A DNA stretch of 64,000 nucleotides from Sycon ciliatum (lineage: Eukaryota > Porifera > Calcarea > Leucosolenida > Sycettidae): positions 9,601,554-9,665,553 of the forward strand of contig NC_088643.1 in assembly GCF_964019385.1 (NCBI RefSeq), in the 5' to 3' direction. Below, piece by piece: positions 661 through 44,840 of this stretch. The notes below the pieces were generated by a model. It saw only the letters and a program-made list of their open reading frames with translations, had not been told where the DNA came from and did no database searches. Each line of letters begins with the position of its first letter. Within the stretch, counting starts at the first letter, position 1. Made by a program: the position numbers and the translations under genes.

Positions 661-880
661 AAGACCCTTGACTAGTGGTTAGAGCGTGGGTGATTGCGGC
701 ACCTCTGCCAGTCTGCCTCCCCCTGCTCCTCCTACTTTGCGGTCTGTGGTGGTGAGGAGCAACCGTGGCAGGCGACTTATCACGCCGGAATCAGAGCCAG
801 CTCCAACATTGAAGCTACATGTACTTTCAAATTCAACGGAAGCATCAGCAGCCACGGGAACGACAACAACAACAACTAAT
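660..880 (+). mobile_element. Possible tRNA-derived SINE head
   Basis: TAGTGGTTAGAGCGTGGG at about 674 resembles a Pol III A box. No clear B box follows at tRNA spacing, so this is a weak call for a truncated SINE. Confidence 0.25.
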
Positions 881-1348
881 CAAGTTTTAGTCTTTCCAAA
901 TTCAGCCACTCCCTGTATTATCCTTGATGAGAAGGGAACGAAAACGTTCGATAACTTATGAGAAGTGCTTTGTAGACTGGATGTGTAAAATTGCGTGAAT
1001 GCTTGTGAACCTACATGTACCTTCATTTGGAAATTGTTATCAGCCTCCGACCTCCTTTTTCTTCTACATGGCTTTTGCACAACGGTAATTTTTGCCCGCA
1101 AAAGAGGCTTAAAAAAGCAATTCCCAAAGGGTTTTGTACGAAAACGTGTTCGAATCATAATGTATCCATGGTTCTTTCTTCCCAATGTATTTCTCCTTTC
1201 CTTTTAGATTGTTGTCGCATCGTCTTCATTGCTTGACATTGTTTTATAAAGTAATCAGAATGTCACTTCAGCTCGTCCTCCTTGTTGCAACAAATACAAT
1301 GCCCTTCATACAGCACTGTTTCGACCACTACGGTCTCATCAGTGTAGG
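880..1348 (-). mobile_element. PLE-type terminal repeat fragment
   Basis: About 1119-1290 matches 33412-33560 in the same order (ACGAAAAC-TTCGAATCAT, a pyrimidine-rich middle, then AGTAATC and TTCAGCTCGTCC). The end carries a minus-strand hammerhead ribozyme. Hammerheads in the terminal repeats of Penelope-like elements are established; assigning this fragment to a PLE is inference, because no PLE protein is adjacent. Confidence 0.5.
1303..1348 (-). ncRNA. Hammerhead ribozyme candidate 1 (type I)
   Basis: On the minus strand CTGATGA (1342-1336) is followed by stem II GACC/GGTC with loop GTAGT, then GAAA (1322-1319). Stem III is ACAG/CTGT with a 2-nt loop, followed by cleavage triplet GTA (expected cut between 1309 and 1308). 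Stem I pairs 5 of its 6 inner positions. All core bases of the hammerhead fold are present. A very short stem III is usual in PLE hammerheads. Confidence 0.75.
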
Positions 1349-1505
1349 TTGAGGATAACGAATAGCTAGAATAAATTTGAAAGCACAGTTTTACACATAG
1401 AATGAAAATGAAGAAGTGCGATCCCGCGCTTTGAGGTAATAGAGGTCGGCCAGAGTGCGCATGTGGTGGAGGTCGAATTGCTGCATTATTAATATTGCTA
1501 GTTTA

Positions 1506-1769
1506 CTATGAGCTTATGTGCACATAGTAAAAGACAGCTTTCTTTTGTCTGGCGCTGTGCGAATGGACATCGTTCTCCTCTGCTGACTGATGTATTCCTG
1601 CCTTTGGACAATCAGATGCGAGGTGGCCAATCCAACCTCCTAGGCTAAAGTTTCTCCGTCGCCGTTCAGCGATCGGTACCCACACAGTGAGCTTCAACGG
1701 TGTGGTCCTCTGGACCGCACTTCGCAATCCAGCTTCTCTGATGTACCAGCCATTATCTATCAGCATCAC
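1506..1769 (-). pseudogene. Possible LINE ORF1 remnant with broken zinc knuckle
   Basis: The minus strand reads open for about 88 codons and contains GWIGHLASDCPKAG, which resembles the second half of a CCHC zinc knuckle; the leading cysteines are missing. Retrotransposon ORF1/gag proteins often carry such knuckles. No start, neighbouring ORF2 or other motif supports an active gene. It could also be a chance open frame. Confidence 0.25.
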
Positions 1770-3100
1770 GTCTCATTTTTCCCCGAGATGTTTTGATGCA
1801 TAGTGATTATGACGCTCATCATTCGCTCCCTTGTCATTTTAGCGAATTCAAGTAAAGAAAACAACAACACAACAACATCATAATTATCTAGTATTATTGT
1901 CTCAATCGTCCTTGTCGTTGCATACTGTGCAGCCTGAACCATAACGGATGTTGTCATACATGTACTTCCTTTCGCCACGGCGGGCTTTTGTAGGTCTTGT
2001 ACATGTACTTCTGTTTGGTCATCTCCTCTTCGCTCGCTGCTCTACAGTGGTGCCATTGTCATCAGGCCATTTGCCTGTTCTGCTTGCCACCCTAAATAAA
2101 TACAAAATTAATACAATACAATAATAATGTGAATGCCAATCCCTCAAGACTCGGCACGTGAGGGCTAAAGCGCGCGCTGCGCGCAAAGAGTCAGTTGCAG
2201 GTACAAAATCATGGCACGAGAACAAACCCATTAATTATTTTCAATGGTGTGCAAATACTGTACTACTTGTGCCATTCATCTCGACGGTACTACAGTAGTC
2301 AGTAGTAATAATCAAGCACGGCCCTAGGCCAGGACCCGGTACCCAGGACTCCTGAATGCCCCGCCATCGAAGCGCCTTTCTGAAGGGATCGGATCACGTG
2401 CGCAATGATGGTCGCTGTAGATCGATGGTAGATAGGCTGGAGTGCGGCAATGACGTCCATACCAGAGCGAATCGCTCAGATGGCCCAGTAGTACAGAATG
2501 CCCGCGGACTCCGGAAACGCAGGCTAAGAGAACACCGGTGTGAATGTCGTCCTCCTTCGAGAGTCCTTGGCACGCCAACAAAAGCTGCATGCGAGTACGT
2601 GTACATACGTACATGCGTACATGTACGCAGCAGGCAACACACTGTAAAAATGACTACAAATAACAGTGGTGGTGATCCGTCTCCTTCAAAACGGCCCTGA
2701 TCACTTGGCGTCGAGTTCAAGTCAGAGTTCAAAGGTTCCCTGGCGCTTACCGAGCAGGCTATAGCGTTCGCTGCGTTGCAAGAACGGGGTCCGGGTTAGC
2801 GCTTCAATGCTGCCGGAGCAGATGGCTAATCTGAGCTGACCACCAAAGTAGCACTGTAGGGACGTCACGAAACCAACAAACAATTGAAAAGTACGTGAAA
2901 ACTGTCACATGCTGTATAATAGTGTTGGCTTGTCGAGTTCGATAAGTGATGGAAGCAAACACAAAACAGCGTCCTGTTCCTGCTTTGCCTACAATACATG
3001 AAGCTGAAGCCCGGAATTTAGGCTTTTAATTTTATCATTGAAAGTCTATAAAACTGTCGGGTGTGTTCTTTGCTTTTCATTCTCGTTCTACTCTCTTCAG
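1770..3100. other. Unassigned region upstream of the HMG exons
   Basis: Both strands stay open over 2324-2730, but no family is recognised. A short ATG frame at 2650 and another at 2949 could be first exons, but neither has a donor in the phase needed by the acceptor at 3100, so the 5' end of the HMG gene is unresolved. Confidence 0.4.
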
Positions 3101-3844
3101 GGTTCACCTCAGTTGGACGATAATCTGCTCATACTCGGGCAAGCATCGCATGCTGAGCTCTTCTCCACAGAGCGAACCATCGAGAAAAAAGAATTGGCCG
3201 CCAGCGCTGGCGACGACGCCACCCAGCGACAGAGGCAGCAGTCAGCCACTGCGGGAAAAGCTGTGGGTGACTTGGCCAAGGCAAAACACAGATCTAACGT
3301 AACGAGTTACTCCGACCAGTTCACCATGAAACCGGAAATGGAGACGCCTGACGATTGTCAATATGGGGTAGGCAGCGGCAGGGACATGTGTAGCGGAAGC
3401 AACGCTCGTCGTATCAAGCGCCCAATGAACTCGTTTCTGATGTGGGCCAAGGAAGCCAGGAAGCGAGTTAGCGACGAACACGCCGACTTGGACAACGCAG
3501 CAATCAGTGGCTTGCTTGGTCAGCTATGGAAGGAGCTGCCAGATAGCCAGAAAGAACCCTTCATACTCCGTGCTGATGACGTCCGACAGCAGCATCGTCA
3601 CGATCACCCCAGCTACTACCGGCATCGCCAACGCAAGAAGCCGCTCACCAAGGACAAGATCGTCAACGAGAAAATTCATCAAGTCGTCCAGGTCGTCCTG
3701 GACTCGAAAGAATTCCCACCGCTCATGCAGGTTGGAGCAGAAGCGATGGGCAGCAACACCGGTGAGGCTGGCGCTGGCGAAACCTGGGACAAGTCAGCGC
3801 AATCGGACAACGCCAGAGTGACCTGCCCTGCCAGTAGAAGGTGA
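3101..3844 (+). CDS. SOX-like HMG-box transcription factor exon A
   Basis: Encodes a SOX-type HMG box at 3407-3640 (about 78 residues). KRPMNSFLMWAKEARKR matches the SOX hallmark RPMNAFMVW, and WKELPDSQKEPF and HPSYYRHRQRKK match helices 2-3 and the basic tail. Such domains bind the minor groove and bend DNA in the nucleus. The frame is open from upstream without an ATG. A pyrimidine tract ending CTCTCTTCAG at 3100 is a good acceptor, so 3101 is the likely exon start; the first in-frame ATG is 3326. The frame stops at 3844, but AAG|GTGAGA at 3840/3841 is a near-consensus donor one codon earlier. Splicing there joins in frame to the HMG exon at 5156. SOX F/E-like by eye; subgroup not assigned. 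The upstream exon is not identified. Confidence 0.8.
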   Translation, partial: GSPQLDDNLLILGQASHAELFSTERTIEKKELAASAGDDATQRQRQQSATAGKAVGDLAKAKHRSNVTSYSDQFTMKPEMETPDDCQYGVGSGRDMCSGSNARRIKRPMNSFLMWAKEARKRVSDEHADLDNAAISGLLGQLWKELPDSQKEPFILRADDVRQQHRHDHPSYYRHRQRKKPLTKDKIVNEKIHQVVQVVLDSKEFPPLMQVGAEAMGSNTGEAGAGETWDKSAQSDNARVTCPASRR

Positions 3845-4520
3845 GAACTCTGCAATCGCTGTCACAACTGTCATGGTTTCCCTTTTCTCTCTAGCTCTTC
3901 TCTTGTACCTTCTTGCTATTATTCACTTAAACATGTAACTACTTGTCGATACTGTGCGTAGAGGCACCGACTCACTAAAATGTTTGGTACTTTGTCGGCT
4001 CATCATCTCAACACAGATTCTAAGGAGAACACAACTACTTATACGTACTAATGAGGAAGGAACTTAGAAAACATTATCCAAAGAGAGGTTTTGGTCACAA
4101 CTGTCATACTTTGAAGTGCATGTACCATTATTATCACTGAGTCTGTTGTTGAGAGTGCACCATCCGGCACCTGTGCGCACTTACAACCTACCTGCATTGG
4201 TCATTGATTCGTCAAATTAAGGCAATCCCATAAATAGAAGTGCACAGGCTCCAGTCTCCTGTGTTAAATACAAGCAGTCACAGTGAGCCACTAGCAGTCT
4301 GTATGCTACTTACATAATTAGAAGGGTAGCATGGTGCGTTGCAACTTGCAACTGACGTGGATGCTGCTGTTTATAATGCTCCCCCACCATCCACCCTCTC
4401 CCCTCACCAAGCTCCTAACTCATATTCATAAGACGTAGGATGAGGGTTCGGGCTACACTGTTTTCCCTGGTAACGCATTGACGGCTCTTCATGATGAATG
4501 TGTGTGAGAGGGAGAGAGAG

Positions 4521-4615
<95 letters not shown>

Positions 4616-5155
4616 GTGGAATGGCAGTATGACGTCAGAGCTACTGGGACAAACTCATGTACTTCAGAAGTACCATCAAGGTCTGGGGCACCAAACTATA
4701 TACCGGCACGTGGTCTAAATGTAGCATGTCTCTCCAGCACCTTCTGGAAAGCGTGGCTTTTTTTTGTCCTCCACGATGGTCTAGTATCATTTCAAAGTCA
4801 GGTGCATATGCCCAATATTGCCGAGTTTCTGAACGATTGGAGATATTTAATGGGCGCCAAACATTGAAAGCTCTCGGACGCACCACCGACAGTGAACTGT
4901 TCTTTTCTGGTTCAAAATTATAGAGCGGATACAAGTGAAACCTAGGCCCGCAATGTGTTGACAGAGCTGTACATGTATGAAAAGGTATATGGACATACGG
5001 GAACATGAATAGAGAAACCGGATAGATCAACCACTCAAATGTTGTGTTAAACTCGAAGCAACGGAAGAATTTGTACAGTGAAGGTTATACTGGCTACAGG
5101 CGACAATGTATTCTCAATCGTGCTTTGTCTCCATCGCTGTGTGTTATTTCTCCAG
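3841..5155 (+). other. Putative intron between HMG exons A and B
   Basis: Bounded by donor GTGAGA (3841) and acceptor TTATTTCTCCAG (5155). No other coding signal and no clear AATAAA poly(A) signal was seen inside, which fits an intron. It holds a compound microsatellite and AT-rich unique sequence. Confidence 0.5.
4505..4612 (+). repeat. Compound (GA)n-(TG)n-(GA)n microsatellite
   Basis: A GA run, then about 33 TG units (4525-4591), then GA again. The VCVCVC frames over it are repeat translation. Confidence 0.95.
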
Positions 5156-6236
5156 CAAGAAACTGGGTAGACGGCAGAAGAGCACAAGCGATAGTCGCGG
5201 CAGCAACAGTACAGCAAACAAGGGTGGCCGTAGAGGGAACAAGAACAAACGGCCCACAAACGCCTTCCTCCTCTGGGCGCAGTCCTCACGGCCGAAACTT
5301 GCCAAGAAGTTTGGCGAGCTGTCCAACTGGCAGATTAGCATGGTACTGGGGGAGCTGTGGAAGCAAGCACCGGTCGAGAGCAAATGCGGTTATCATAAAC
5401 TGGCCGAGCAGCTGAGAAACGAGCACCGCGCCAGCAACCCGGAACTGTACCGTCATCCAGAGCGGCTCGCTGTCTGCAAGCTGGAGTCCGCTAAAGCGGA
5501 GAGCTCCCCCGGCGAGGACAAGATGACTGCCTTTGCTCTGCGCGTAAGCACAGCGTCGTGCAATGGCTCCTCATTGCGCAGCTCTGAATCGATGTACCTT
5601 AATTCTACGCCATCGGTCGCTGAGCCGGCAACGCTAGCGTTGTCTGCAGGTTCATCCATGTCATCAGCGTGCAGCACTATGAACACGTTGGCTTCACCGG
5701 CTTCATCCTCCGCAACAGCACTAGACTACCAACGGCTGCTGAGCGCTGACCTGCTAACCGATAGTGAACTATCTCACTGCCTGACGGACATCAGCGCCAG
5801 TGCAGTCGGCTCTGCTTCCCCGCTGGACGCACTCTTGCAGGCCGAGGATGTCAGCCACTTCCTGCAAGGCCTGGGCTCAGCGAAGTCAGAGAGCTCTCTT
5901 TTCTCCAGCAGCTCTTCGCCGATTCGACCCAGCGGAGGTATCGACGACACCGCTGTGCTCCTACCCGAGCCGATATGGTCGGCAGCACAGCTGACAAGCA
6001 TAGCACCGTCTCTCTACGCCCAGTCCTACATGTGGCCAGACCTAGCCAACACACTGATGATGGACAGCTGGCATCCCAACACCAACCCGACCGCCCAGCA
6101 CCTATGGTCCGCGCCGGCGATCCCTCAGGACATCACCATGGCCAATGGACTGCACTCTCCGTATCTCGGCTTCATGCCAGGACTGGCAAACCCAAGCACA
6201 TTATCTACTGGCATGCAGCTACCCATTTTCAACTAA
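5106..6236 (+). CDS. Divergent HMG-box exon B with Ser/Ala-rich tail
   Basis: Contains a divergent SOX-like HMG box at 5241-5471: KRPTNAFLLWAQ aligns with RPMNAFMVW and LGELWKQAP with helix 2, but the conserved Met is Thr and helix 3 carries an unusual KCGYHKLAEQ. The box is followed by about 250 residues rich in Ser, Ala, Thr and Pro, typical of an activation region, ending at TAA 6234-6236. An ATG at 5106 opens the frame, but the 16 residues after it are hydrophobic and lie on a pyrimidine-rich acceptor (TTATTTCTCCAG, AG at 5154-5155). The real exon therefore probably starts at 5156, needing two bases from the previous exon. Exon A at 3840 supplies exactly two. Either B is the 3' exon of a two-box gene with A, or its own first exon is unrecognised. 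Confidence 0.75.
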   Translation: MYSQSCFVSIAVCYFSSKKLGRRQKSTSDSRGSNSTANKGGRRGNKNKRPTNAFLLWAQSSRPKLAKKFGELSNWQISMVLGELWKQAPVESKCGYHKLAEQLRNEHRASNPELYRHPERLAVCKLESAKAESSPGEDKMTAFALRVSTASCNGSSLRSSESMYLNSTPSVAEPATLALSAGSSMSSACSTMNTLASPASSSATALDYQRLLSADLLTDSELSHCLTDISASAVGSASPLDALLQAEDVSHFLQGLGSAKSESSLFSSSSSPIRPSGGIDDTAVLLPEPIWSAAQLTSIAPSLYAQSYMWPDLANTLMMDSWHPNTNPTAQHLWSAPAIPQDITMANGLHSPYLGFMPGLANPSTLSTGMQLPIFN

Positions 6237-7079: not shown

Positions 7080-7228
<149 letters not shown>

Positions 7229-10693: not shown

Positions 10694-11593
10694 TCAGCCA
10701 TTACACACAGCACACATTAGTTCCTTCCACTTTCGACGATCCTGGGCGAGCTGCCTCAGTGCAACTAGATCCTCGTGTGATGTGAGGGAGTTTGTGGATC
10801 TGGAATTTTTCAGGTCGTTGTTGATGGATCGCGGGAGGGTTGTTCTCGGGCGGCCTCGGAACCCTGAGCTTCCTGGCTGAAAGTATGCTGACATAGCCTG
10901 CTGGACCGGGGATGAGGTGTCTAGTCGAAGCATGTGGCCAAGCATTCTCCACCTAGCAGACTGGATGATTCTGCTGAGTGGCTTGGAGCCAGTGCGCCTG
11001 TACAGTGCTTCATTGCCTATTATACGGGGATATTTGACCTCTATGACTGCTCGTAACTGCTGGCGGTGGAACGAGTCAAGTTTCTTTTCTTGAGTCTCTG
11101 TCAGGCTCCATGTGCCGCAGTTATAAAGAAGTATTGAGAGAATAAAGCTGCTGTATAACCTAATCCGAAGGGGTTCACGGGCATGGTTACCTCTTAGCCA
11201 TATCACCCACAGCTGATGTAAGGCACATGTTGCTAGACGTTTTCTCCGACTGATATCTTCCTCCACTCCAAGCATCGATCCTAGTTTGACCGTGTTCCGC
11301 CATCGCTCGTCTACTCTGTCCTTTTCTCTTTTAATTGTAGTATATTCGGTTTTGGCTTCATTCATTTTTAAATTGTATTCCGCTAACGAGGATGATAGTA
11401 TGGGTTGATTGTCATGCAAATATTGTAGGCTGGTGCTGATGAAGTCTACGTCATCCGCATACGCTGTTTCATTGGGCAATTGAAGCTGAATATCCAATGC
11501 TGGTCGCGGTGAGAGTCGCTCTCGAATCAATCTCAATGCAGCCTCGAGGTAGACAGTAAACAGGACTGGCGATAGAGAATCACCTTGTGGGGT
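10694..11593 (-). pseudogene. 5'-truncated LINE reverse transcriptase (family 2)
   Basis: Encodes the palm, thumb and C-terminal region of a non-LTR retrotransposon RT. PQGDSLSPVLFTVYL (about 11593-11548) is RT motif B and AYADDVDFIS carries the catalytic YADD. Then come YNCGTWSLT, FHRRQLR-like FHRQQLRAV and ARWRMLGHMLRL, typical of the C-terminal region. The frame is intact to the stop at 10694 but starts inside the RT domain; homology ends abruptly near 11593, the usual 5' truncation of LINEs. Same family as the interrupted copy at 28394-31909. Clade not assigned. Not a host gene. Confidence 0.85.
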
Positions 11594-14035: not shown

Positions 14036-14183
14036 GTGAGTATAACCTTCTGTCGCCAGGGTAGTTACCGGTCATTAGCAAAGCATCGTGTGAATAACAC
14101 AGGAGTGGAGTAAGCATTAAAGCTAAATGACCATATTTCCTAGGAGTAAGTTATTGAGCACAGTATAACACAGGTAGTGAATG

Positions 14184-14319
14184 ATCCACCGTGCCATGCT
14201 CGAAGCACAAGCACTGCATCCACCGTGCCATGCTCGAAGCACAAGCACTGCATCCACCGTGCCATGCTCGAAGCACAAGCACGTCATCCACCGTGCCATG
14301 CTCGAAGCACACGCACTGC
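14184..14319 (+). repeat. 34-bp minisatellite, four copies
   Basis: Four head-to-tail copies of a 34-bp unit starting ATCCACCGTGCCATGCTCGA, differing at only a few positions. One or two degenerate units (ATCCACCGTGCCAGGTTCAA) reappear at 15826, after the LINE, so the array was split by the insertion. Confidence 0.9.
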
Positions 14320-15825
14320 GAGTAAAGCCTTTGACAAGGTGAAGCATGCCACCCTCATCCAGGACTTGTTCAGCATCGGTATATCCGGCACAGCCCTGAA
14401 ATGGTTTCGGGACCATCTGTCTGGGCGCCATCAACGCGTTCGTATGGGCTCCCGACTGGGCAGAACTGCACCGTGCACTTGTGGTGTGCCGCAGGGCTCT
14501 GTACTAGGACCCATGCTGTTCTCCATATACACCAGAGATGTCCCCTCTGAATCTGCGCCGGCATCATCACTGCAGTTTGCGGATGACATCGCCCTGACAT
14601 GTGCAAGACGGACAGCGCAAGCGGTGTCTGATGCGCTCAGCTTGGCGGTTACCTCCCTCTCAAGTTGGCTGGACGCTCGTGGTCTTGTATTAATTGCAAA
14701 GAAGAGCAATGTATTGGTTTTTACCAGCAGCAGTGGGCAGCAGCCGGATGTGGTTGTACGCTGTCGAAATGATGTCCATCCGCACACCACCAGCGCGAAA
14801 TACCTCGGCGTCTTAATCGATGAACGAATGGCCTGGCAACCGCAAGTTGATCGATGCATCTCACGCACTGCCATGAAGATCGGTAGTCTGTGGCGGGCGT
14901 GACGCTGCCTCACTCTAGCTAGTCGAAGCAAGTACTTCCTATCTGTCATCATGCCGGTTTGAGTATATGGATCGTCAGCATATGGCTCCGCTTGACCCAC
15001 AACCAGCTAAACCGCTTGCAAGTGGCCCAAAACCGCGCAGCAAGGGCGGTGTTCGGACGACCACGATTTACCAGGGCCAGTGACCTCTTGGAGAGGCTCT
15101 CTGTATATCGCGTGGACGAGGTATATCGCCAGAAACTGCTCGTGCTGGTATGGTGGTGCGTTCCTAACCGTGCCAGTCCTGCTCTGCAGGCACTGTTTGT
15201 TCGCAACTGCGGAGCAACTCGCCTTCAGCGCAGTCTGGGCCTACAACAACCAATAGCCAGAAGCCGAGCAGGCCAATGCCGACCGGCATCTCGCGGTTGC
15301 CTGTTATGGAACCATATACCTGACACGGTGCGAGCCATGGGCAACATCCCAGCATTCCGCCGAGCTGCTATTCCTTACACGTTGTAGATTGCTACACAGT
15401 TGGCCATACCATGGTATTCAGTACCCACGAACTTTGCAAAGCCGATAATGTGATAATGTACCGTGGTGCATGCACCGATGGTACCACCACTTCGTAGACT
15501 GTCTCCCGTTCATTTCTGTGCTCCTGTCTTTATTCTCTTGAGTTTGTGTACTCGTTTCGCTGTTTGTTTGGTTTATTTGAATTCGCACAGTACACGTGTA
15601 CTTCAGCTATTCTCTCCTCCCTCTTCTGAGTTTGACTCTCTGCTGGCCTTCTCTCCTCCCATCCCCGGCCTTACATCGTATTGGGCCTCGGCAGCCCCCC
15701 CCCCCCCCCCCACCACCACCACACGCACACACTACATTGTCATATAGCACAGCTCAACCATTCGCTACCCTGCTATTGAGCACTCCTGCTCGTTTGGTCT
15801 CGCGAATCCAAATAAAATCAAAAAA
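14320..15825 (+). pseudogene. 5'-truncated LINE (family 1), RT and C-terminus, decayed
   Basis: Starts inside RT motif A (SKAFDKVKHATL), then GVPQGSVLGPMLFSIYTRD (motif B), LQFADDIAL (catalytic FADD variant) and SAKYLGVLIDERMAW. An in-frame TGA at 14900 follows LWRA, a second TGA and a frameshift follow, and the C-terminal region resumes at 14959-15387 (LQVAQNRAARAVF ... WNHIPDTVRAMG). The 3' untranslated part ends with hairpin GAGC-ACTCCT-GCTC (15778-15791) and AAATAAAATC. Same family as 28705-30857. It sits within the 34-bp minisatellite. Confidence 0.85.
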
Positions 15826-28704: not shown

Positions 28705-30857
28705 TTGTTGTTTTTTATTTGAATTCGCAATACCAAACGGGCAATAAGCCCAATTACATGGAAGCGAATAAAAGAATGCTAAGAATGAGGCATTGGGGTG
28801 GATGTTATTTCAAGTGGAAAATACTGATCCCGGGAGGTACTACAAATAGGTACAATGAAAATCTGAAAAGGCCATGGTACTGTCGTTTACCATGCTGAAA
28901 GCAGCTACATGGAGAAGGAATAACAACAAGAAAGACGTTTATCTCATGTATTGGACAAACAGAGCTAACAGGAAAAGACCGTTCGTTATAATTATGCCTA
29001 TACATACTGTCCGTGTGTGTGGGGGGGGGGGGGGGTATGTCACTGTTTCTGTTCTTTTAAAAACGTTTATGGCCTGAGAGTGTACGGGTACACGGCTGCT
29101 GCGAAATCGGCCACGGCTTTGCAGGAACGTACACTGGCTGGCAGAGTGTTCCACAGCGCAGGTCCACGGAAGAACGGTCGGCGAGTGCCTGTATTCGTCC
29201 TGGCCAGCGGGAGAATGAGCCCGGCGTTGGCTTGATGTCGAGTTGGGGCCGTGGTTGCGGGCTTCAGCTGCTTTGAAAGCGCTGTACTACATTGGCCGTT
29301 CAGGCCGCGCCAGATGAGATCGAGGAGTCGGTGGTGTTGTGTCTCCTCGATTTTCCGGAGGGATATGCTCTCCCTTTGGTCGCTTACCGAAGATGTGGGT
29401 GGTAGGCTGAACACAGCGCGGATGGCACGGTTCTGAAGACGTTGGAGTTTCCCTAGAGCGAAAGCTGAGAGGGACGTGCTATAGGCCACACTTCCATATA
29501 ATAGGTCGGGCATCACAACGGATTTTAGGTATTGGACCCTGGCCTTCTGGGAAAGGGATCGCCGGGCTCGCCACAATGCTCCGACTTTCCTGTTCACCTT
29601 CGCTGTAACATCGTGGATATGATGGTCCCAGGTCAGTTGCTCGGTGATGGTTAAACCCAAGTACTTGGCCGCAGTACAAGCAGGTAAGCGGGTCTGATGG
29701 CAATTTACAGCGATACTGGTTTGCGCATCCCTCCAGTTGGACAGAACTTGACTTTTGCGTTCATTCAATATCAGGCCACGGTTTTCGAGCCAGTCGGCCA
29801 GCGCAGTGACGGATGACGAGAGTCCCAGTGAAATAGTTGCCGTGTTGGAACCACTTTGGTACAGTGCAATATCGTCAGCAAATTGTATGCTAGGGGTCGG
29901 GTGAGCTACTGCAGCTACCGCTCGGGTGTATATATTGAACAAGATGGGCCCCAATACAGATCCATGGGGTACTCCACTTGTGCATACTGTGATGTTGCTC
30001 AGTTCGCTACCGATGCGGACTTGTTGTGTCCGGTTTGTAAGGTAGCTAACGAGCCATTTCATCACCGTACCGCCAACTCCAATTTCAAAGCAGTCCTGGA
30101 TCATAATTGCATGCCGCACTTTGTCGAAGGCCTTCGACATGTCAAGGAAGCACACTCCAGAGGAGTCCTTCTTGTCGCGAGCCATTTGCAGCTGATCAAC
30201 CAGTAAGGCTAGTGCATCACCCGTCGAGTGCTGCCGGCGAAATGCAAACTGAGTTTCCGGGATAGCGTCGGTGTGGTCGAGGTGCCGTACAAGCTGCCGC
30301 TGGACCAGCTTTTCCAGCAACTTTGACAAAATCGGAAGTAGCGACACTGGCCTATAGTTTGTCGGCTGAGACGGATCCCCAGACTTGAACAGCGGGCTTA
30401 CAGCCGCCAACTTGAAACCGGCAGGCACTGCACCAGATTTCAGTGACAGGTTGAAGAGTGTGGTGACAGATGGTGTGAGGACCTCGGCACAGGACTTCAG
30501 GAGGAATCCTGGGACACCGTCGCTGCCCGTTGCTTTCGCAGGGTTGACTTGACTTAGTAGACGGTAGATTACGGAACAAGAGGCTGGCTGGAACGTGTGC
30601 AGGCTATCCGATGGAAGTGGGCCGACGGGAGAGGCTAGGCATGATGGGCGCTTTGGATCCGTCACAATGTCATGAAACACGTTGGCTACCTCTTCGATGT
30701 TGCAGGTTGGTTCGGTTTTCTGCTTCCCGCGTCCGGTGACGGTATTGATGACTTTCCAAATCTGGCGGGGGTTTCTGGAATGTTCTTGGCATTGACGTGC
30801 GAAGTACTCATTTCTACAACGGCGATACATGTTCGTTGCCTGAGTTCGAACCTTCCA
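28705..30857 (-). mobile_element. LINE family 1 insertion (2.15 kb)
   Basis: Minus-strand insertion in a family-2 LINE, flanked by GCAGATG (28698-28704 and 30858-30864). The 3' end has hairpin GGGC-TTATT-GCCC (28751-28739), GCGAATTCAAATAAAA and a short AAC tail. 5' truncated: no endonuclease. It also carries a G-run at about 29019-29034. Confidence 0.85.
29067..30830 (-). CDS. LINE reverse transcriptase, long intact frame
   Basis: An uninterrupted frame of about 587 codons covers the whole RT domain. Fingers: NPAKATGSDGVPGFLLKSCA and NYRPVSLLPILSKLLEKLV. Motif A: FLDMSKAFDKVRH. Motif B: GVPHGSVLGPILFNIYTR (His replaces the usual Gln). Catalytic box: IQFADDIALYQ. Then AKYLGLTITEQLTW, LQRLQNRAIRAVFS and the terminal WNTLPASVRSCKA. 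The first codon is not an obvious start and the endonuclease is missing, so this is a 5'-truncated copy rather than a complete ORF2. The absence of stops suggests a recent insertion. The RT would copy element RNA at a nicked target. Confidence 0.88.
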   Translation of the reverse strand: MYRRCRNEYFARQCQEHSRNPRQIWKVINTVTGRGKQKTEPTCNIEEVANVFHDIVTDPKRPSCLASPVGPLPSDSLHTFQPASCSVIYRLLSQVNPAKATGSDGVPGFLLKSCAEVLTPSVTTLFNLSLKSGAVPAGFKLAAVSPLFKSGDPSQPTNYRPVSLLPILSKLLEKLVQRQLVRHLDHTDAIPETQFAFRRQHSTGDALALLVDQLQMARDKKDSSGVCFLDMSKAFDKVRHAIMIQDCFEIGVGGTVMKWLVSYLTNRTQQVRIGSELSNITVCTSGVPHGSVLGPILFNIYTRAVAAVAHPTPSIQFADDIALYQSGSNTATISLGLSSSVTALADWLENRGLILNERKSQVLSNWRDAQTSIAVNCHQTRLPACTAAKYLGLTITEQLTWDHHIHDVTAKVNRKVGALWRARRSLSQKARVQYLKSVVMPDLLYGSVAYSTSLSAFALGKLQRLQNRAIRAVFSLPPTSSVSDQRESISLRKIEETQHHRLLDLIWRGLNGQCSTALSKQLKPATTAPTRHQANAGLILPLARTNTGTRRPFFRGPALWNTLPASVRSCKAVADFAAAVYPYTLRP

Positions 30858-30864
30858 GCAGATG

Positions 30865-31099
30865 CCACGCAGAGCCCATCAGTGCCCTCATGCGGCGATC
30901 CAGATGGGGCCTGTTTGGGCATATCCTCAGACTCCCTCAAGACACGCCTGCCGCCCTCGCTATGCAGAGTTACTTCACCTGTGGGGACAAGGTATGGCGA
31001 GGGCGGCCACGGACACCCATCGTGTCCACACTATCCGCGGACCTAGAATCAGTAGGACTGAGGAGTCTGAGGAACTTGGCAGACCTGGAGCACCTGCGG
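30865..31099 (+). pseudogene. LINE family 2, part 2 of 3
   Basis: Continues in frame from 28704: AEPISALMRRSRWGLFGHIL aligns with KPLSRIIQSARWRMLGHMLR of 10694-11593, followed by WRGRPRT and LRNLADLEHLR. Interrupted at 31099 by a hAT-type MITE. Confidence 0.8.
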
Positions 31100-42338: not shown

Positions 42339-43737
42339 CTAAAGCAGATCACCAAACCAGCTCGGGAACTGGAGGCTGGGAGCGTATGTACCGTTTTGCT
42401 GTAGAAGTGCACCGACAGGCATGGAGCCATTCTGTTGCAGTCCATGCGACGATATGTTTCCAGCTGAGAGACTTACGGGTGGGGACACTGCAGGCGGCAT
42501 GCTATTCACAGGCTTCATTGGATGTTGTGAGGATGGCGCTGTCGACTGCTGCGCCTTGCCGGGCCTGGACATAGCCGAGCCTTCCCGTGTCGATGACGCG
42601 ATTGCCACGTTCTGCGGTGGCATCAGCTGTGCCGAAGACACCACATCCGGAACGTGGACATGTACGTGCACACATGACGACGGGTCGACTGGGGAGCCGG
42701 ATAGGTGCGAGTTAGCATGCACGGGCGGTTCGTCGGCGAGAAAGACCGGGTGGTTCGGGCCGGCGCTTAGTGGTGTCGCGGGCAACATGCGCTGGATCAT
42801 GCCAGGTAGGAAGGCCGCCGAACTACTCGCCATGGCTGGCGGGGCAGTGGAGGAAAACGCTCCGGATATGCTGGGCGTCGGTGGCGCCGTGGAGACCTGC
42901 AGCGCGGTATTGTAGGCCGCAATGTCCGCCATGTACGGGAACTGTGCCGTCAGCTGCGGGGACCAGGCCGCTTCCATGGGCAGCTGCATTCTCGCAACGT
43001 CGGCAGCATCCACCTCTAGCTGCAGCAGATGGTCGTGCAGCGAATCATCTGAAGAAGTAGATCGGCAATACGTGCGTGATGTGCTGCTGTACAACGACAG
43101 GCCCGTACAAGTGGATGTTGGGCTGTAGTCATAGTGAGAGGAGCAAGCCATCGAGTCCTGCGTTGAAACAGCGGCAAGAGGCAGTGTGCCATTGGGCGCA
43201 GGCGCAATTGATGCAGTCTCTTTTGGCGCCTCGTCAAACTGCATCAGCCTGACCATTGTATCCTCCGTGATGCTGCTCTTCGTCGTGGCCTTGAGTGGCA
43301 CGGCACCTTGGGCGCGAGGCTGTCGGCGTCGGCGTTTCGGATTGGCTTCGCGATATTCGTCGCAAGCTTTGGCGGCCTGCTCGTGGTACGGAGCCTTCAG
43401 TGCCTCGGGCATGATGCGCCATTTCTGACCGAGCAGCTTGCTGATTTCGCTGTTCGGCATTTTCTGTGGGACGATGTTGTGGAGACGACGGCGCTCAGTT
43501 CGGGCCCAGATCAGGAAGGCGCTCATTGGCCGTTTCAGCTTCTTTGGCTCTTCTTCCTCCTCCTCATCTTTGGCTGTGCCCGCTGGTGGTGTTGCGGCAG
43601 TTGCCTTGTGAACGGGCGGGGATGCTTTGCCGGCGGCTGAGACAGAGTTTACCAAGCTGTGCGAACAGTTGGTGCACACCACGCCTGCTGGTTCTGGCGA
43701 ACTGTCCGGTCTCTTCTCAGGGGACGACGGGCACGAT
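42339..43737 (-). CDS. SOX-like HMG-box transcription factor, exon 2
   Basis: Acceptor CCTTTCCCACAG ends at 43738, so the exon starts at 43737 and needs two bases from exon 1. Pro/Ser-rich residues, a DEEEEEEP acidic run, then the HMG box at 43544-43308: KKLKRPMSAFLIWARTERRR (SOX hallmark), NSEISKLLGQKWRIMP (helix 2) and ANPKRRRRQPR (basic tail). About 310 residues follow, rich in Ser, Pro, Thr and Ala, with HVHVHV near the middle and a final LQFPSWFGDLL, ending in TAG at 42339. Probably a nuclear DNA-bending regulator with an activation tail. There is no in-frame ATG in this exon before the box, so an upstream exon is required. Confidence 0.88.
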
Positions 43738-44700
43738 CTGTGGGAAAGGTGTCCATAAAACAGTTGGAAAGAACAGCCGGATTAGTCATGGTGCGGACGA
43801 TGGCAATAGCTAGTAGTGTTTCTAATTTCTTAGCTGGAGATCATTGAGGATTGCATCATAAGACACTGTTCTCAGTATCTATTAGTGTCGTACCGCGGCA
43901 CACTGCTCTACCCTGCTGTTATCTGTACAAATGATTGACAATTGCAGATCTAACACACTCGGACATTCGGTGTTTGTCAGTACACAACACTGGCTTTTCA
44001 AATATAGCGAGGCAGCTTGAATGTCTACTCTCTGTATCAGGGTAAAGATGGGGCCCCAGGCCCCATGCAGCGAGGCTAAAACTTACACACATGTGCCTGA
44101 TAAGACGTAACAGCATACGGACCAGTTAGGTTTGAGGATCCGCTTCCCAACTGCTTCTTTTCTGATCCCTTCGTGGAATGGCACAGATTTGACCAGCCGG
44201 CTTGATTTATGAAGCTCCTCCGAAGCAGCTCAATATCGTAAATGAGATAGGCTGCATTCTCGCTACGACTGCTGCGGCGGCCAACATAGCTTTGTACAAG
44301 CATGGGTTCAGGCTAACAAACCTATCTAGTCTAGCTAGTGGCTTCAGGACCCGAGATATGTTTTGTTTCGGGCTCTGAATGGCTTTGTCGCACTATCAGC
44401 GGTGCCGGCATACCCAGACGAGGCGACGATTCGCAGTATCGGCATTGATTCTTTCGATAGATTCTATCGGTGGCTCTCTGGAATAAGGACTTACGCCAAC
44501 TGACGTGGTTCTTCTGCAGCACATCCCATCCCTTCCAATCAAGTCTCTACTGGCATGGTGAACCCTAGTTCAAACCGGATATCTAGATAATCCATACCAC
44601 GGCCGTTCAACTGACCAAATTCATCTGTGGGCATTCTTTACCTATCTGATTTTGTCTATTCGAACTCAGCATGCAATATTATTGTTACTGCTCAACTCAC
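43738..44700 (-). other. Intron of the minus-strand SOX-like gene
   Basis: Donor CAG|GTGAGT at 44701/44700 and acceptor CCCACAG at 43738. Splicing keeps the frame (AG|A, Arg). 963 bp, nothing else recognised. Confidence 0.65.
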
Positions 44701-44840
44701 CTGCCCTGATCCGAGCCCGAGTAGACGCTACAGGCCGAAGGAATTCCGTACGATGATCTCGGTGAGTTGGACTTCGAGCTCCAATTTCCCGGCGAACCCT
44801 CCGCAAGATCCGGAAATTGTCCTTGTCTCATGCTGGCCAT
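44701..44840 (-). CDS. SOX-like gene, exon 1
   Basis: The first in-frame ATG is 44840 (MASMRQGQFPD...). 46 codons plus two bases lead to GGGCAG|GTGAGT. The residues are low-complexity Ser/Gly/Asn (SSKSNSPRSSYG), usual for a SOX N-terminus. The frame stays open upstream to 44972 (NNNNYWNSTNQIGLFGTF), with an acceptor-like CCATCTGCAG at about 44937, so the true first exon may lie further out and 44840 may be internal. Joined to exon 2 it gives about 512 residues. Confidence 0.6.

What the first reader, a model, noticed from the sequence alone, without database searches (positions are those of the whole stretch)
3101..6236. Two HMG-box exons may splice into one double-box SOX-like protein
Seen: exon A ends AAG|GTGAGA at 3840, leaving two bases of a codon. 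The HMG exon B has an acceptor at 5155 that needs exactly two bases. The join is in frame, gives 607 codons including stop, and no poly(A) signal was noticed between. Known: SOX proteins carry a single HMG box. Inference: this could be a two-box fusion gene, with box B diverged for a new role. Chance phase agreement is 1 in 3.
Basis: partly seen in the sequence, partly recalled or inferred. Interest (0 to 1): 0.85.

Follow-up and report, generated by a model that had tools for sequence, protein, structure and literature searches.

The report
Sox-like gene with two HMG boxes
Two neighbouring Sox-type DNA-binding domains in this animal genome very probably belong to one gene, an unusual layout that was hinted at in calcareous sponges in 2012.

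Summary
Exon A (3101-3840) carries an HMG box and ends in a strong phase-2 donor. Exon B (5156-6236) carries a second, more diverged HMG box behind a phase-2 acceptor. Joined, they are open for 607 codons including the stop. No RNA was available, but sequence evidence favours one two-box gene. A has a possible start but no stop of its own apart from one inside the donor; B has a stop and a tail but no good start. Codon usage turns coding at 3101 and 5156. Of 147 AGs offered to A's donor, the one before 5156 scores best. A scan for a separate first exon for B found nothing convincing, while the same scan found that of the neighbouring gene C as its top hit. The boxes pair in the tree (94/90, rough), so duplication then fusion is likely. 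The layout is not wholly new: Fortunato et al. 2012 (PMC3495037) list 12 HMG domains for 11 Sycon genes, with SoxL4a/b under one accession. I read that as a two-box gene; the text that I read does not say so. This locus is probably its orthologue; that could not be tested. By the tests used it is Sox-like, not a classical SOX.

The parts
3101..3840 (+). exon A of the two-box Sox-like gene; acceptor CTCTTCAG| at 3100 (phase 0), donor AAG|GTGAGA at 3840 (phase 2)
   Evidence: acceptor rank 7 of 4094 and donor rank 3 of 3955 in the window; codon score +0.21 to +0.26 per codon against -0.73 for 3008-3100
3326..3328 (+). first in-frame ATG of exon A (CACCATGA, good Kozak context by recall); gives a 531-residue protein if used; the true start may lie in an undetected upstream exon
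   Evidence: sequence; frame from this ATG listed; 3101-3325 also scores as coding; no convincing upstream exon in the 13 kb scanned
3413..3619 (+). HMG box A
   Evidence: Pfam PF00505 67.2 bits; best PDB match SOX18, 81 bits
3841..5155 (+). intron joining exon A to exon B (1315 bases)
   Evidence: 28 of 30 stop-free stretches of 16 or more codons, three frames, score as non-coding; the other two score 0.10 and 0.05; no alternative terminal exon for A with both a good acceptor and coding usage
3948..4097 (+). 150-base repeat inside the intron, 85-93% identical to copies on contigs C9, C5 and C11; a 14-base direct repeat (GTCACAACTGTCAT at 3861 and 4094) suggests an insertion with target-site duplication
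5156..6236 (+). exon B: linker end, HMG box B, C-terminal tail (18.6% Ser), stop TAA at 6234-6236
   Evidence: acceptor TTTCTCCAG|C; codon score goes from -0.55 (5107-5155) to +0.30 (5157-5240); best of 147 AGs for A's donor; tail make-up
5247..5444 (+). HMG box B (diverged)
   Evidence: Pfam PF00505 57.6 bits; AlphaFold model with three HMG helices (mean pLDDT 75); best PDB fold match SOX9 4s2q, E 9.8e-4, TM 0.83 by target and 0.60 by query
7114..7119 (+). first AATAAA downstream of the stop of exon B (ATTAAA at 7109)
42339..44840 (-). neighbouring single-box Sox-like gene C, used as control: exon 1 44840-44701 (ATG, 46 codons, AG|GTGAGT), exon 2 43737-42339; the intron before the box is also phase 2
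   Evidence: a predicted model, no RNA

Best explanation
The two exons form one gene for a Sox-like transcription factor with two HMG boxes. It probably arose when an ancestral Sox-like gene duplicated in tandem and the donor at the end of the upstream box exon came to splice into the box exon of the downstream copy. The protein would have at least 531 residues (counted by hand from the Pfam ranges): box A (residues 30-98 from ATG 3326), a linker of about 104 residues, box B (203-268), then a tail of 263 residues with 18.6% Ser. Inferred working: box A keeps most of the SOX-type core and a basic C-terminal extension (RHRQRKK), and does most of the sequence recognition and bending. Box B keeps the HMG fold and a hydrophobic wedge, but has changed residues where SOX boxes read DNA and lacks the basic tail. 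It would act as a second, less specific DNA-bending or protein-contact module, as second boxes do in tandem-box HMG proteins (recalled). Shown here: the open spliced frame, the signals, the coding switch, the predicted fold of box B. Inferred: transcription, splicing in vivo, DNA binding and role.
For: In-frame phase-2/phase-2 join, 607 codons. Donor 3rd of 3955 GTs; 2 of 234 long frames end on such a donor. A's donor tried with all 147 AGs in 3880-5900: exon start 5156 is best (acceptor 3.9, codon sum 92.5 over 359 codons); the next ones read the same frame of B with much poorer acceptors, and the strongest acceptor inside the intron (3895, 7.1) opens 21 non-coding codons (-13.6) after a 54-base intron. 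Codon usage trained on 2962 codons of 7 other Sox-like genes, A and B left out: +0.21 for 3101-3325, +0.26 for 3638-3838, +0.30 for 5157-5240, against -0.73 for 3008-3100 and -0.55 for 5107-5155. Of held-out stop-free non-coding stretches of the same length (overlapping, so not independent), 0 of 233, 0 of 339 and 0.2% of 1753 reach the three exon values. In the intron 28 of 30 stop-free stretches score below zero. B has no ATG between 5156 and helix 2 of its box (sequence). No convincing first exon for B: 7 ATG-donor candidates in 3842-5100 at a cut of 3, best donor 5.7 with two codons; the same scan on gene C has its first exon on top (12.5, 46 codons; next 8.3). The 10 single-box comparators in open frames (L001-L008, L010, L014) keep box and a tail of 240 to 491 residues in one frame; A breaks off at a donor 74 codons after its box. 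A and B pair in the tree at 94/90, and at 94/89 and 94/96 in two builds without TCF and SOX30. A gene SoxL4a/b with one accession per species is in print for Sycon and Leucosolenia.
Against: No transcript was available. Fortunato et al. [quoted passage not shown] The acceptor is only 76th of 4094. The splice matrices were recalled, not trained on this genome. The missing poly(A) signal is uninformative (0.56). Two intron stretches score weakly positive: 33 codons from 4330 at +0.10 and 21 from 4221 at +0.05. Exon A seems to be coding from 3101, yet no convincing upstream exon was found in the 13 kb scanned, so the 5' end is incomplete. The tree node A+B is under the 95 mark, the bootstrap had not settled and B's branch is long. 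Gene C has a phase-2 intron before its box, so B could have inherited a phase-2 acceptor from an independent gene.
Confidence: 0.85

Rival explanations
1. Two separate tandem genes: A ends in a small undetected 3' exon, and B starts from its own short first exon, as gene C does.
For: Gene C, in the same cluster, has a short first exon and a phase-2 acceptor in front of its box, so B's acceptor could be an old one of that kind. The 10 other Sox-like genes in open frames have one box each, and one search lists no second SOX-like box within 10 kb of any of them.
Against: Of 7 candidate first exons for B in 3842-5100 none has a donor above 5.7; two candidates in 700-3100 (donors 6.2 and 5.7) would have to skip A. 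No terminal exon for A inside the intron has both a good acceptor and coding usage.
Confidence: 0.09
2. A and B are two cistrons of one pre-mRNA, with 5155 used as a spliced-leader acceptor (operon-like).
For: Trans-spliced leaders are reported in a glass sponge, on 4% of long reads (PMC10282587, passages seen). 3100 is an acceptor without a found upstream exon.
Against: After 5156 there is no ATG before helix 2 of box B, so B could not start with its whole box unless the leader supplied one. A's strong donor would have no partner. One paper search joining spliced leader, trans-splicing and calcareous sponge found only the glass sponge paper.
Confidence: 0.03
3. B starts unspliced at ATG 5107 and A ends at its TGA 3842; two genes without an intron between or before them here.
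For: ATG 5107 is in frame with B and the frame is open.
Against: 5107-5155 scores -0.55 per codon; 89% of 2749 held-out non-coding stretches score as high or higher. It includes the pyrimidine-rich run of the acceptor. A's stop TGA is part of the donor AAG|GTGAGA.
Confidence: 0.03

Closest known systems
SoxL4a/b of the calcareous sponges Sycon ciliatum (JX171153) and Leucosolenia complicata (JX171159), Fortunato et al. 2012, PMC3495037
   Same: Apparently one gene with two HMG domains: 12 domains for 11 Sycon genes, one accession per species. Classed as Sox-like because the HMG domain departs at RPMNAF and/or the YK/R positions, as A (RPMNSF, YYR) and B (RPTNAF, LYR) do.
   Different: The sections that I read give no exon structure and do not discuss the double box.
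Classical SOX proteins (SOX9, SOX17, SOX18, SRY)
   Same: Box A is 49% identical to SOX18 and 44% to SOX9; box B 38% to SOX9; the predicted fold of B matches SOX9 best.
   Different: Two boxes instead of one; box B lacks the YKY and basic tail region; A and B are 36% and 33% identical to SRY.
Tandem-box HMG proteins (HMGB1, TFAM/Abf2, UBF)
   Same: Two or more HMG boxes in one chain (recalled).
   Different: Boxes here are SOX-like by score, are about 104 residues apart, and lead into a 263-residue tail.

Membership tests
SOX (classical) | HMG box with RPMNAFMVW-type motif (motif recalled) | tested here: not met
   A reads RPMNSFLMW, B reads RPTNAFLLW
SOX (classical) | about 50% or more identity to the SRY box (threshold recalled) | tested here: not met
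   A 36.0%, B 33.3% to SRY; best A 49.4% to SOX18, B 37.7% to SOX9 among four boxes compared
SOX (classical) | closest solved relatives are SOX/SRY boxes | tested here: met
   A: the first 27 of 60 rows are SOX or SRY chains, 4 of them SRY fusion constructs. B: the first 15 of 54 rows likewise, 2 of them fusions, the top one SRY/HMGB1. Fold search best hit SOX9
SOX (classical) | single HMG box | tested here: not met
   two boxes in one predicted spliced frame; no RNA proof
SoxL4a/b (calcareous sponge Sox-like) | two HMG domains in one gene | tested here: met
   in silico only
SoxL4a/b (calcareous sponge Sox-like) | divergent residues at RPMNAF and/or YK/R | tested here: met
   criterion; alignment
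SoxL4a/b (calcareous sponge Sox-like) | sequence orthology to JX171153 / JX171159 | not testable with these tools
   I had no access to these records or to the paper's supplements
SoxL4a/b (calcareous sponge Sox-like) | host is a calcareous sponge | tested here: inconclusive
   the Sox-like set of this genome resembles the Sycon list in size; species not identified
HMGB / TFAM tandem-box proteins | boxes closest to HMGB-type boxes | tested here: not met
   HMGB1-3 chains score 36.5 bits or less for A (best 81, SOX18) and 28.4 or less for B (48.8 for SOX9); TFAM and Abf2 32.9 or less for A, Abf2 24.1 for B

The most novel reading that the evidence does not exclude
A lineage-specific class of obligate two-box Sox factors: after duplication and fusion, box A kept sequence recognition while box B changed its DNA-reading residues (a tryptophan where the other SOX boxes aligned have Ser or Ala, loss of the YKY/basic tail), so that one protein places two different bends, or one bend and one protein contact, at fixed reach along the DNA.
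Probability: 0.3. Interest if true: 0.6.

Novelty: new member of a known kind. Interest (0 to 1): 0.45.

Why it matters
SOX factors are usually treated as one-box proteins that gain specificity by pairing with partners (recalled). A natural two-box Sox-like factor in an early animal lineage would be a built-in dimer and a direct test of how a second box changes specificity. The gene model given here (exons, intron phase, sister boxes, a 115 kb Sox-like cluster) makes the two-box gene listed in 2012 testable with one cDNA.

Tried and rejected
Looked for relatives: one scan of viral contigs with A and one of genome contigs with B found none; these collections are viral and prokaryotic, so that says little. 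Looked for a second copy of the locus in the genome, to compare exons with intron: 40 of 282 candidates were scored; one is the locus itself, 39 are the intronic repeat; a copy among the unscored ones is not excluded. Looked for RNA genes in the window: 0 Rfam matches at gathering score, 0 tRNAs; the intronic repeat does not fold better than shuffles (z 0.95 and 0.02). Tested B with C and D as one clade: log-likelihood 7.93 lower, p-AU 0.093, not rejected; all four cluster boxes: 2.64 lower, p-AU 0.372. The first codon check of the intron (15 overlapping windows, one frame, each stop counted as -3) was too crude and was replaced. Tried to identify the species through letters in papers: nothing usable (passages of PMC8058475, PMC5390275, PMC5064789). 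Literature searches: (10 of 10 used); 'SoxL4' occurs in one held paper. The library holds open-licence papers only, so this does not show that the double box is undescribed elsewhere.

Full report
What was checked. The window lies at C1:9601554-9665553 of a 538 Mb, 313-contig assembly; introns and SOX-like genes point to an animal. The claimed donor, acceptor, phases and length were recomputed and are right: 607 codons from 3101 to the stop, including it. Both exons carry an HMG box well above the Pfam cut-off (67.2 and 57.6 bits, cut-off 25.4).

Is the join real? There is no RNA here, so I asked whether the sequence behaves like one gene. (1) Signals: the donor at 3841 is 3rd of 3955 GTs of the + strand, the acceptors at 3100 and 5155 are 7th and 76th of 4094 AGs, under matrices recalled from memory. 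(2) Frame ends: of 234 stop-to-stop frames of at least 80 codons, two have a donor scoring 9 or more within their last 10 codons or stop: A, and the first exon of the next Sox-like gene, C. (3) Codon usage, trained on seven other Sox-like genes of this genome with A and B left out, is positive in 3101-3325, 3326-3838 and 5157-6233, and negative in 3008-3100, 5082-5156 and 5107-5156. Against held-out, stop-free non-coding stretches of the same length (overlapping), 0 of 233, 0 of 339 and 0.2% of 1753 reach the values of 3101-3325, 3638-3838 and 5157-5240; for 5107-5155 89% of 2749 do. In the intron, 28 of 30 stop-free stretches of 16 or more codons score below zero and two slightly above (0.10 over 33 codons, 0.05 over 21). 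(4) Partner choice: of 147 AGs in 3880-5900, that before 5156 gives the best sum of acceptor and codon score for A's donor; the runners-up read the same frame with much poorer acceptors. (5) Rival first exons for B: seven weak ATG-donor candidates in 3842-5100 at a cut of 3 (best donor 5.7, two codons), and two in 700-3100 at a cut of 5; the same scan on gene C has its first exon on top at 12.5.

Complementary halves. Ten single-box Sox-like genes with open box frames (L001-L008, L010, L014) keep the box and a tail of 240 to 491 residues in one frame ending in a stop. Exon A breaks off at a donor 74 codons after its box; exon B has a tail of 263 residues and the stop, but no ATG between its acceptor and helix 2. 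Each half looks incomplete; together they make a usual Sox-like layout with an extra box. I count twelve SOX-like boxes in single open frames (these ten, A and B) by eye among the 30 matches; most others look like HMGB, TCF or other boxes, and three (L020-L022) are SOX-like half boxes cut by an intron, which I did not follow.

Points against. The poly(A) argument is weak: 56% of simulated stretches of this length and composition lack the two signals. The acceptor is middling. The 5' end is unsolved: 3101-3325 looks coding, yet among phase-0 donors of 7 or more in the 13 kb upstream only five ATG candidates turned up, the best two or three codons long. TATAAA at 3047 leaves open that exon A is a first exon. 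Fortunato et al. could not amplify SciSoxL4a/b probes, so the published relative too may lack transcript proof.

Origin. The boxes A and B pair with support 94/90 (bootstrap not settled), and with 94/89 and 94/96 in two builds without TCF and SOX30. This misses the 95 mark, and B has a long end branch (4.12 against 0.72). C and D, 53% alike, pair at 97/97. Grouping B with C and D instead is not rejected (p-AU 0.093). All four boxes lie within 115 kb of a 98 Mb contig. Tandem duplication then fusion is the simplest account. Gene C's intron before its box is phase 2 like B's, so B's acceptor may be older than the fusion.

What the boxes may do. AlphaFold on box B, with A and C as the only other rows, gives three HMG helices (mean pLDDT 75, pTM 0.58; ten-residue blocks across the box 81-94) and a fold closest to SOX9 (E 9.8e-4, TM 0.83 by target, 0.60 by query, rmsd 4.7). 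By the alignment, both boxes keep the Asn and Phe of RPMNAF, have Leu in place of the Met wedge, and keep the Ser of the 'IS' pair. Box B has Trp where the other SOX boxes aligned have Ser or Ala; A ends YYRHRQRKK and B LYRHPERLA, where SOX2 has YKYRPRRK. The roles of these residues are recalled from SOX-DNA structures. Net charges are +6 and +7, so both could bind DNA.

What is known. PMC3495037 (abstract, results, methods, one discussion section, supplement list and passages read; [quoted passage not shown] I read this as a two-box gene; the sections that I read do not say so in words. A later ctenophore study (PMC4021642, passages) used seven Sycon genes; its table lists no SoxL gene. So the layout is probably known by name, and this locus is probably its orthologue, in Sycon or a relative; the species was not identified.

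Verdict. A two-box Sox-like gene model, probability about 0.85, of a kind that was listed before but that I found described nowhere in detail (searches in Tried and rejected). Interest is moderate.

Noticed in passing
window 3948-4097: A 150-base repeat in the intron matches, at 85-93%, 39 scored copies (of 282 candidates, 40 scored) on C9 (0.7-3.0 Mb), C5 (21.6-21.9 Mb) and C11 (28.1-28.8 Mb); array units compared on C9 share hundreds to thousands of bases. A 14-base direct repeat brackets the stretch here.
   Followed up: partly
L043 2448-2491 and L045 2404-2447: Type I hammerhead ribozyme matches just over the gathering score (35.4 against 34) in two of four array loci searched.
   Followed up: no
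window 42339-44840, minus strand, and C1:9719313 (L010): Two further Sox-like single-box genes, sisters in the tree, form a 115 kb Sox-like cluster with A/B; their boxes have insertions of 1 and 3 residues.
   Followed up: partly
C2:6098480, 6118343, 6136773 (L001-L003): Three nearly identical SoxB-like genes in tandem over about 38 kb.
   Followed up: no
L020, L021, L022: SOX-like half boxes that end near position 37-38 of the Pfam model, probably at an intron; L020 and L021 are near copies on C2 and a small contig.
   Followed up: no
window 10694-11593 (-), 14150-14899 (+), 29070-30878 (-): Reverse transcriptase frames of retroelements.
   Followed up: no
window 3047-3052: TATAAA about 50 bases upstream of 3101; exon A might be a first exon instead of following an acceptor at 3100.
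   Followed up: no
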